Origin: Crocinitomicaceae bacterium
Lineage (GTDB): Bacteria > Bacteroidota > Bacteroidia > Flavobacteriales_G > Salibacteraceae
Assembly (NCBI GenBank): GCA_002713215.1
Contig: PAVO01000025.1
Location: 56,490 to 120,489 of the forward strand
DNA length: 64,000 nt
Reading direction: 5' to 3'
Below the pieces are notes generated by a model, which saw only the letters and a program-made list of their open reading frames with translations, did not search any database and was not told the DNA's origin. The stretch's first letter is position 1; the number at the start of each line of letters is the position of its first letter. Below, piece after piece: positions 12,789 through 18,437 of this stretch. Both the position numbers and the translations under genes were made by a program.

Positions 12789-13535
12789 ATGATCAAAAAA
12801 GAAAACTGGTTCGAAAATTGGTTCGATACCCCGTGGTATCACCAGCTTTATTGTAATCATGATTTTGATGAAGCCAACCGATTTATCGAAAATCTTATCG
12901 CCTATTTAAACCCACCAAACCAATCGAAAATTTTAGATCTAGCCTGTGGCAAAGGTCGGCATGCCATGCATATTAATCGGCTAGGTTATTCTGTCTGGGG
13001 TGTCGATTTATCGGAAAGAAGCATTAGTTCTGCCAGCAAGTCTGAAAATGAACACTTAAAGTTTTCGGTACATGACATGCGAATGGTGTTCAAACCCAGT
13101 CACTTCGATTACATTTTCAATCTATTTACCAGTTTTGGATATTTCAATGCCCCTGAAGATAACCACCGTGTTATGCAGTCGGTTTGCGATGGTTTAAAAT
13201 CGGAAGGTATTTTTGTATTGGATTTTTTAAACGCCAGCAAGGTTAAAAACACCCTGGTTTCAAAGGAACGAATTACCAAAGAAGACATCGAATTCTCCAT
13301 TCATCGGCAAATCAGGGACAACGTAATCCTAAAAGAAATTGATTTTGACGCCGATGGGAAACATCATCATTTTGAAGAACGAGTAACCGCATTCGAACTA
13401 AAGGATTTAGAAGCGTTGTTTAAGCCTGTTAGACTTAGTATAATAGATACGTTTGGAAATTACTCCCTGGATAAGTTTAATGAAGAAGATAGTGACCGTC
13501 TGATACTAGTAGCCCAAAAAAAAACCGACCAATAA
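12789..13535 (+). CDS. Class I SAM-dependent methyltransferase
   Basis: A 248-residue soluble enzyme with the Rossmann methyltransferase fold. Motif I (SAM binding) is ILDLACGKGRHAMH at about residues 53-66, followed by the acidic end of strand 2 (GYSVWGVDLSERSI) and motif IV around FDYIFNLFTSFGYF. The GxFxxD-type strand (EGIFVLDFLN) follows. The substrate cannot be told from sequence. Single base between its stop and the next gene's ATG, so it is co-transcribed and probably coupled with the PrsW-type protease. Confidence 0.85.
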   Translation: MIKKENWFENWFDTPWYHQLYCNHDFDEANRFIENLIAYLNPPNQSKILDLACGKGRHAMHINRLGYSVWGVDLSERSISSASKSENEHLKFSVHDMRMVFKPSHFDYIFNLFTSFGYFNAPEDNHRVMQSVCDGLKSEGIFVLDFLNASKVKNTLVSKERITKEDIEFSIHRQIRDNVILKEIDFDADGKHHHFEERVTAFELKDLEALFKPVRLSIIDTFGNYSLDKFNEEDSDRLILVAQKKTDQ

Positions 13536-16693: not shown

Positions 16694-18437
16694 CTAATAA
16701 TCAGGATCCAGATTCAGTCTTTTTCTTAGCTCTGCTAATTTAGGATTAAGTTCTGCCATGCGTTCAAAGCGTTCTTTGTTGGTATAGTATTTTTTCTTTT
16801 GTTCTTCAACTCGTACTTCGGTTTCAATTTGGATTCCCCAATTGTTTAGCGATTCCCTAAGAAACCCAAGCAATTCTGTTTTGTGATGATTGAATTCACT
16901 TTCCTGAACTTTGTTATCGAAAACCATGTTCAATAGAAAATTTTCTCCAATCTCCGGTCTGCAACTCAGCATGGTACTGGTTAAACTGGCTCGCTTATCC
17001 TTCTTTAAAACGCCGATATACTGATTCCATTTCGCCTTGAAATCCTCCTCGTTAAATGGTGTTCTTGGACGATCCGAGAAATCTTCAATTTCCTCTTCTT
17101 CCGATTTAGGACCGGAATCATTCAGCATTGCATTTATGGAAACCGTTCCCGACTTAAACCCCTTGCCAAGCATTCCCTTTTTAATCTTTTTGACGGGTGT
17201 AGGGTTTGCTGATATGGTTTGGATTACCGGCCTTTCCTCTTCTTCGGGAGAAACATAGACTACTTGTTGAGTTGGAGCCGGAACCGCTTTGGGTTTTTTC
17301 GCAAGTTTATCGCCCTGGATGATAATCGGAAAGTCTTCCTCCTCTTCGAACCAATTAATTAACTGGACTTTTTTTTTCGACCGCTTCGGTTATTGAGCAA
17401 AGCTGCATGAGGGTAATTTCAACCAGCAATCGCTGATTTTTACTGGCCTTGAATTGGATGTCGCACTTTGAAGTAATGCGCAAAGCAAATAACAACTCTT
17501 CACCGGTGAGCAATTCAGCTTGTTGGCGATACTTGTCTTTAATGTTTTCTCCAACGAGGAGTAATTCCAGGGTTTCAGGATTCTTACACACCAGTAAGTT
17601 CCTGAAGTGTTCGGACAGTCCACTGATAAAATTGTGCCCGTCAAAACCTTTGTCCAATACTTCATTGAAAATTAAAAGTGACTGGGGAATATCATTCTTA
17701 TGAATGGCGTCGGTAATTCTAAAATAGTAATCGTAATCCAGAACATTTAAGTTCTCAATAACATCCTGGTATTTGATATCATTACCACAAAAACTTACAA
17801 TTTGATCGTAAATGGAAAGGGCATCGCGCATGGCCCCATCCGCTTTTTGGGCGATAATGTGAAGGGCATCGTGCTCCGCTTTTACCTTCTCTTGTTTTCC
17901 TATTTCTTCCAATTGCTGAATAATGTCGGGAATTTCAATTCGTTTAAAATCGAAAATCTGACATCTGGATAAAATGGTAGGAAGAATTTTATGTTTCTCC
18001 GTAGTGGCTAAAATAAATATAGCATGAGGAGGAGGTTCTTCCAATGTTTTCAAAAAGGCATTAAACGCCGAAGCGGATAACATGTGAACCTCGTCAATAA
18101 TATACACGCGATAATTTCCAACCTGAGGAGGAATTCTAACCTGGTCGATTAGGTGCCGAATATCGTCAACGGAATTGTTTGATGCAGCATCCAACTCAAA
18201 AATGTTGAACGAAAAATCATCATCGCCTTCATGATCTTCGGAAGTATTAATTTTTTTTGCCAGTATTCTGGCACATGTAGTTTTACCTACTCCCCTGGGA
18301 CCTGTAAATAAAAAAGCCTGGGCCAAATGGTTACTGGATATCGCATTGTCCAGCGTTTTGGTTATGGAAGCTTGTCCAACGACATCCTCAAAGGTTTGAG
18401 GGCGATACTTTCTTGCCGAAACAACATAATTTTCCAT
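16694..18437 (-). CDS. dnaX: DNA polymerase III subunits gamma and tau, with internal frame change
   Basis: DnaX is the clamp-loader ATPase of the replisome. From the ATG at 18437, frame 0 encodes 360 residues: Walker A GPRGVGKTT (about 45-53), DEVHML, and sensor 1 ATTEKHKILPTILSRC, ending at a TAA at 17355-17357 just after domain III. That product equals a gamma form. Just before the stop lies a nine-A run (minus strand, 17369-17377). Reading one A fewer joins frame 0 to a second open frame that continues to 16694 (KVQLINWFEEEED...MLGKGF...NLDPDY), giving a 580-residue tau-like protein of normal family length. Either the run is a slippage site that makes both forms, or the ninth A is a sequence error. 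No zinc module is present in the ATPase domain. Confidence 0.9.
17369..17377 (-). other. A9 homopolymer, candidate slippage site in dnaX
   Basis: Nine A on the minus strand, read GAA AAA AAA AGT in frame 0. An eight-A transcript would read through to the 580-residue product; nine A stops seven codons after the GAA. Ten A also meets a stop (TAA) within a few codons. Thermus thermophilus dnaX makes its two products by RNA polymerase slippage on a similar A9 run. Confidence 0.7.

What the first reader, a model, noticed from the sequence alone, without database searches (positions are those of the whole stretch)
17355..17377. dnaX broken at an A9 run exactly where a gamma/tau switch belongs
Frame 0 stops after domain III, giving a gamma-sized 360-residue product, and one fewer A restores a 580-residue tau of normal length. 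An identical solution (A9, RNA polymerase slippage) is known for Thermus thermophilus dnaX. If real here, this would be a slippage-made gamma/tau pair in Bacteroidota. A homopolymer sequencing error is the main rival. The whole gene is 1744 bases, which is 3n+1, so exactly one base must be dropped for a single frame.
Basis: partly seen in the sequence, partly recalled or inferred. Interest (0 to 1): 0.75.

Follow-up and report, generated by a model that had tools for sequence, protein, structure and literature searches.

The report
Stuttering A-run makes two DnaX proteins
In this Bacteroidota bacterium the clamp-loader gene dnaX is split between two reading frames at a run of nine A's, a run that most relatives examined also carry (usually as ten A's), and RNA polymerase likely stutters there so that one gene would yield both a short (gamma) and a long (tau) protein.

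Summary
Confirmed: dnaX (minus strand, 18437-16694) has A9 at 17369-17377; the template frame stops after 360 residues, and the tau tail continues in the frame reached at A8 or A11.
Not a lone sequencing error. Of 250 Bacteroidia dnaX loci compared, 226 carry an A-run of at least 9 at this spot (190 exactly A10). The tau tail lies in the template frame in 144, the -1 frame in 76 and the +1 frame in 6, the window among them. Among all 233 run-bearing loci (7 from other classes) the tau frame changed at least 25 times on a tree. Stops close both non-tau frames within 6 codons in 213 of 233, against about 15% at control positions; the frame that a -1 ribosomal shift never enters is closed in 210 of 227. 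No hairpin signal was found. This fits transcriptional slippage better than ribosomal frameshifting; mRNA was not measured.
The window's A9 itself is doubtful: a database protein identical over 356 residues has the A10 form. The kind is known (Thermus dnaX slippage; two-ORF dnaX genes with A10, Antonov et al. 2013). The class-wide, frame-blind pattern is what this adds.

The parts
17355..18437 (-). dnaX template-frame ORF: gamma-like product, 360 aa, domains I-III
   Evidence: NCBIfam dnaX_nterm 7e-119; Pfam DNA_pol3_gamma3 residues 230-357
17369..17377 (-). A9 run (predicted RNA polymerase slippage site)
   Evidence: an A-run of 9 or more at the same place in 226 of 250 Bacteroidia loci
17355..17357 (-). 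TAA that ends gamma in the template frame (A9 mRNA)
17359..17361 (-). TAA that ends the frame read if the mRNA has A10
   Evidence: read from the sequence; the frame matches the P0002 C-terminus EKKKSS
16694..17368 (-). tau-specific tail, in the frame reached if the mRNA run is A8 or A11 (open frame extends up to 17389)
   Evidence: PRK14971 tail 1e-25; HMM of 150 relatives' single-frame tau tails, E 1.2e-55
16694..18437 (-). whole dnaX gene, 1744 bases, predicted to give tau of 580 aa from A8 mRNA
   Evidence: arithmetic

Best explanation
The dnaX gene here is split between two frames at a run of A's, and both gamma and tau are likely made from it because RNA polymerase is predicted to slip on the run and so would produce mRNAs with different numbers of A's. 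Shown: the run, the template-frame gamma ORF, the tau tail in another frame, the stops in both non-tau frames, and the same arrangement in relatives with the tail in any of the three frames. Inferred: mRNAs with A8 or A11 are read into tau, mRNAs with A9 or A10 stop after domain III as gamma, and selection keeps the run about ten long rather than keeping the frame. Untested: slippage itself, the gamma:tau ratio, and use of both proteins in the clamp loader.
For: An A-run of 9 or more in 226 of 250 Bacteroidia loci, 190 exactly A10; tau frame 0 in 144, -1 in 76, +1 in 6. On a tree of 270 sequences the tau frame changes at least 25 times among the 233 run loci; in 17 of the 22 close pairs with different frames printed both have A10. 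Both non-tau frames stop within 6 codons in 213 of 233 run loci, against 15% and 16% of 9320 control positions each in gamma part and tail, and 4 of 37 run-less loci. The third frame, never entered by a -1 ribosomal shift, stops within 6 codons in 210 of 227, and in 47 of 50 representatives at 75% identity, against 33-41% in controls. No hairpin signal downstream or upstream beyond controls, 120 of 233 loci sampled. An HMM of single-frame tau tails hits 82 of 83 frame-shifted tails. A10 is the usual length in every codon phase: 15 of 22, 154 of 179, 23 of 32. Antonov et al. 2013 observed that direction is conserved under ribosomal frameshifting and need not be under transcriptional realignment (section read). 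In an E. coli cell-free system ribosomes slide little on A9 or A10 and robustly on A11 (section read).
Against: No RNA or protein data. A -1 ribosomal shift could explain the two common states (tau in frame 0 or in the -1 frame), though not the stops in the third frame; a 2016 review words the reversed dnaX organisation as ribosomal frameshifting (section 21 read). The +1 state has only 6 of 233 members, and each could be a run-length error of one base; the window's A9 and L051's A9 look like that. Lengths other than 10 are scattered almost at random over the tree (33 changes against a shuffled mean of 39.6), as errors or short-lived changes would be. SD-like motifs just upstream are more frequent than at two control places (37 against 19 and 19 of 233). 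A fold spanning the run had mean z -0.99, for which I had no matched control. All tRNA-Lys genes seen have anticodon UUU (incomplete census), which does not speak against ribosomal shifting. L232 has a broken frame and no homopolymer of 7 or more near it. One shifted tail, L271, was not hit by the tail HMM.
Confidence: 0.8

Rival explanations
1. Programmed ribosomal frameshifting at A_AAA_AAA, as in E. coli dnaX: a -1 shift gives tau where the tail lies in the -1 frame, or gamma where tau is in the template frame.
For: The heptamer is present in frame. 220 of 226 run-bearing Bacteroidia loci have tau in frame 0 or -1, both reachable this way. SD-like motifs are about twice as frequent upstream as at controls. 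Only UUU tRNA-Lys seen in the loci scanned. A 2016 review describes reversed dnaX genes in these terms.
Against: Stops close the third frame in 210 of 227, which a -1 shift does not need. No downstream hairpin signal. In the window as assembled a -1 shift ends at KSS. Six loci need the opposite direction.
Confidence: 0.1
2. Ribosome sliding on poly(A) in both directions, with uniform mRNA.
For: Sliding can leave the run in any frame (passages), so it also explains stops in both other frames.
Against: In an E. coli cell-free system little product of sliding was seen on A9 or A10 and robust sliding on A11 (section read), while the usual length here is 10. 176 of 233 runs hold only two whole in-frame AAA codons.
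Confidence: 0.07
3. Homopolymer error: the true gene is an ordinary single frame.
For: The window's A9 is one base shorter than the A10 form of the same protein in the database (P0002).
Against: With A10 the gene is still frame-broken (P0002 ends EKKKSS). Of the 120 proteins listed, all 22 at 74% identity or more are 358-400 aa and end a few residues after EKK. Relatives have A10 with broken frames, including one-contig genomes L006 and L017. An A9-for-A10 miscount remains quite likely (my estimate 0.5-0.6) but does not change the arrangement.
Confidence: 0.02
4. Gamma and the tail are separate proteins, the tail translated by re-initiation, or the tail is decaying.
For: The tail has an internal ATG at 17173.
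Against: Only 1 of 83 frame-shifted loci has an ATG in the tail frame from 3 codons before to 20 codons after the run, 12 of 83 counting GTG and TTG. Tails in shifted loci match the single-frame tau tails (82 of 83).
Confidence: 0.01

Closest known systems
Thermus thermophilus dnaX, transcriptional slippage on A9 (Larsen et al. 2000; paper not held, seen through passages of PMC1088944, and section 21 of PMC5009743)
   Same: A-run of 9 or more, stops close by in both non-tau frames, gamma and tau from one gene.
   Different: In Thermus tau is in the template frame and gamma comes from slippage; in the window gamma is in the template frame. Thermus slippage was measured, this was not.
Two-ORF dnaX genes of Antonov et al. 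2013 (PMC3711429; passages, and section 10)
   Same: Recoding needed for tau; 12 of 17 genes have poly-A, nine with A10; transcriptional realignment proposed there too.
   Different: All 17 were -1 at the DNA level; the window as assembled needs the other direction, though its A10 form is -1. They reported 17 genes of 12 genera and no conversion between frames in the passages I read.
E. coli dnaX, -1 programmed ribosomal frameshifting
   Same: A-rich shift site, two products, gamma ends soon after it.
   Different: E. coli uses A_AAA_AAG with an upstream SD-like motif and a downstream hairpin; no hairpin signal here.
Blochmannia dnaX homopolymer frameshifts (PMC3017870, passages)
   Same: Poly-A frameshift thought to be corrected by slippage.
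   Different: There it lies downstream of the gamma/tau switch, inside the tau-only part, in a symbiont; here it is at the switch and conserved.

Membership tests
DnaX (gamma/tau clamp-loader subunit) | N-terminal clamp-loader ATPase with domain III | tested here: met
   NCBIfam dnaX_nterm 397 bits against a cut-off of 250; Pfam DNA_pol3_gamma3; E. coli tau/gamma chains as best solved relatives
Two-ORF dnaX with recoding for tau (Antonov et al. 2013) | Template frame ends as gamma, tau tail in another frame | tested here: met
Two-ORF dnaX with recoding for tau (Antonov et al. 2013) | Poly-A at the junction (12 of their 17) | tested here: met
   A9
Two-ORF dnaX with recoding for tau (Antonov et al. 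2013) | -1 shift at the DNA level (described property of all 17) | tested here: inconclusive
   Window A9 needs +1; the A10 form of the same protein (P0002) would be -1
Thermus-type dnaX slippage | A-run of 9 or more at the gamma/tau switch | tested here: met
Thermus-type dnaX slippage | Stops close by in both non-tau frames | tested here: met
   Window: stops after 3 and 2 codons; 213 of 233 run loci within 6 codons
Thermus-type dnaX slippage | Tau encoded in the template frame as a single ORF | tested here: not met
   Window tau is in the +1 frame; met in 150 of 233 run loci. So not filed as a Thermus-type member, though it likely works like one
Thermus-type dnaX slippage | mRNAs of mixed A-run length | not testable with these tools
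   No RNA data
E. coli-type -1 ribosomal frameshifting | Downstream hairpin stimulator | tested here: not met
   Window z +0.8; 120 of 233 loci sampled, mean z -0.29 against -0.19 (tail) and -0.06 (gamma) controls
E. coli-type -1 ribosomal frameshifting | -1 shift leads to the second product | tested here: not met
   From A9 a -1 shift ends at KSS and gives another gamma-size product (read); it would be met for A10

The most novel reading that the evidence does not exclude
Across most of class Bacteroidia the gamma/tau switch is frame-blind: slippage on about ten A's makes both proteins whichever of the three frames the tau tail lies in, so selection holds the run length and lets the reading frame drift, and the genome no longer fixes which of the two proteins is the 'normal' translation product.
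Probability: 0.65. Interest if true: 0.7.

Novelty: new member of a known kind. Interest (0 to 1): 0.55.

Why it matters
If right, in much of a major bacterial class an essential replication gene depends on inaccurate transcription, and its reading frame is free to drift. In frame-broken species the database lists 359-362 aa proteins under the name 'gamma/tau' (P0005, P0009, P0019, P0022), without the tau tail. It also gives a comparative test that separates slippage from ribosomal shifting (closure of the frame that a -1 shift never enters), usable on other poly-A genes.

Tried and rejected
Single-frame gene broken by a sequencing error: rejected, since relatives share the arrangement. Separate translation of the tail: rejected for lack of start codons near the junction. 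Hairpin- or SD-stimulated ribosomal shift: no hairpin signal; a modest excess of SD-like motifs is left standing. tRNA-Lys census as a hint on ribosomal shifting: only UUU seen, incomplete (25 of 30 loci scanned, the genome has 81 tRNA matches), not decisive. Window homopolymers as an error gauge: of three A9 runs in the window, dnaX's is the only one that splits a gene as far as I could see by eye, but this says little about read errors. Pfam on the tail found nothing at 0.01. Solved structures: E. coli gamma/tau chains best, nothing on the switch. No structure prediction was run.

Reports in print: searches for dnaX with transcriptional slippage, with frameshift, Bacteroidetes and slippage, with Flavobacterium, gamma, tau and frameshift, for programmed transcriptional realignment, RNA polymerase slippage with Flavobacterium, dnaX with transcriptional slippage and Cytophaga, with transcriptional realignment, with Bacteroidetes and homopolymer. 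Only open-licence PMC papers are held. Antonov 2013 is the closest report found; its supplement with the species list was not read. PMC3971599 (a flavobacterial symbiont; passages) only lists dnaX as present.

Full report
What is there. On the minus strand, dnaX starts at 18437. Its template frame runs 360 codons to TAA at 17357-17355 and ends EKKSPVN. An A9 run lies at 17369-17377. After it, the frame reached with one A fewer (or two more) is open to 16694 and matches the tau tail of NCBIfam PRK14971, E 1e-25. With one A more the frame also stops, at TAA 17361-17359. So A9 and A10 mRNAs would give gamma-size products, and A8 or A11 mRNA would give tau.

Is A9 real? The protein search returned P0002, identical to the window's gamma over 356 residues but ending EKKKSS, which is what A10 encodes. 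Its sources are shown as '-', the mark the tool gives to proteins of the window itself, yet the window as given does not encode this ending; the entry stands for 2 member sequences on 4 contigs, the longest 259,667 bases, longer than the window's own contig (120,489). I take it as the A10 form of the same species. Of the 120 proteins listed, the 22 at 74% identity or more are all 358-400 aa and end shortly after EKK, so the frame is broken in all of them. The A9 of the window is either a strain variant or a miscounted A10; in both cases the gene is frame-broken. I have no reads.

Survey. I compared 276 loci: 30, 80 named ones (taken as Bacteroidia without checking each), 46, and 120 stretches (100 of the class, 20 of other classes of the phylum). 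I chose the stretches from the listings by rank and by spread over families; open-frame lengths were in view when I chose, and the lists rank by likeness to the window, so proportions lean to its relatives. Three loci were duplicates and three (L092, L096, L124) were dropped for truncated tails, leaving 270. The run taken is the longest A-run in a stretch of about 290 bases around the end of domain III; in the 233 run-bearing genes only seven other runs of 9 or more exist.

Result. Of 250 Bacteroidia loci, 226 have a run of 9 or more: 190 A10, 23 A9, 12 A11, 1 A12. The tau tail lies in the template frame in 144, in frame +2 (a -1 shift) in 76 and in frame +1 in 6: the window L001 (A9), L051 Flavobacterium sp. 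YO12 (A9), L038, L150, L200 (A10) and L236 (A11). Twenty-four lack the run, among them several gut Bacteroidales loci. Of 20 loci of other classes seven have the run, all but one with tau in the template frame.

Frame flips while A10 stays usual. On a FastTree tree of the gamma parts (run columns left out) the tau frame changes at least 25 times among 233 loci, against a mean of 70 for shuffled labels, so it is inherited but flips repeatedly. Run length changes at least 33 times against a shuffled mean of 39.6: lengths other than 10 are scattered, not clade-wide. Of the 22 close pairs with different frames printed (81-98% identical in the gamma part), 17 have A10 on both sides, so there the flip must come from bases beside the run. 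A10 is the usual length in all three codon phases. In an ordinary gene one would expect the frame to be kept.

Both other frames are closed. Stops fall within 6 codons in both non-tau frames in 213 of 233 run loci and within 14 in 232. At random codon positions of the same genes the figure for 6 codons is 15-16%, after shorter A-runs in the gamma part 13%, and in run-less loci 4 of 37. The sharpest test is the frame that a -1 ribosomal shift never enters: it stops within 6 codons in 210 of 227 loci, against 33% (gamma) and 41% (tail) in controls, and in 47 of 50 representatives at 75% identity. Sequences are related, so p-values overstate; the 50 representatives are the fairer figure.

Stimulators. 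In 120 of 233 loci sampled, folds downstream of the run have mean z -0.29 against -0.19 and -0.06 at controls, and upstream -0.21 against -0.04 and -0.23. A longer fold spanning the run gave -0.99, without a matched control. SD-like motifs just upstream occur in 37 of 233 against 19 and 19, a modest excess that I cannot explain away.

The tail is real protein. An HMM from 150 single-frame tails hits 82 of 83 tails of frame-shifted loci, the window at 1.2e-55; L271 is the miss. Only 1 of 83 has an ATG near the junction.

Reading. Antonov et al. 2013 (section read) observed that direction is conserved under ribosomal frameshifting and need not be under transcriptional realignment. Their own dnaX set of 17 was all -1 (passages). 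The wider set here has all three states and closes both other frames, as Thermus dnaX does (passages; section 21 of the 2016 review, which however words the reversed dnaX genes as ribosomal frameshifting). Ribosome sliding was robust at A11 and slight at A9 and A10 in an E. coli cell-free system (section read). RNA polymerase slippage is therefore the most likely mechanism, at about 0.8. No RNA was examined.

Limits. The +1 class is small and each member could be a one-base error; the argument against a pure -1 ribosomal shift rests mainly on the closed third frame. L232 is broken without a homopolymer of 7 or more nearby. Whether gamma is needed in these bacteria is unknown.

Noticed in passing
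L232 (G226:C1:25793-28099): dnaX broken between gamma and tail (tail in frame +2) with no homopolymer of 7 or more near the junction.
   Followed up: partly
G000 contig C7, 352536-354518 and 366431-371509 (outside the window): Dense tRNA gene arrays; the genome has 81 tRNA matches and ARAGORN calls one tRNA-SeC(tca) in the array.
   Followed up: no
window 13516-13524 (+): Another A9, about three codons before the stop of ORF 12789-13535, where slippage would change only the last residues.
   Followed up: no
L064, L069, L084, L090, L099, L102, L104, L110: dnaX loci (several from Bacteroidales) without the A-run and with one long frame: the switch seems lost or replaced there.
   Followed up: partly
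L257-L259, L267, L271, L273, L274 (other classes of the phylum): Some dnaX genes outside Bacteroidia also carry a run of 9-10 A's, seven of 20 examined, suggesting an older or repeated origin.
   Followed up: no
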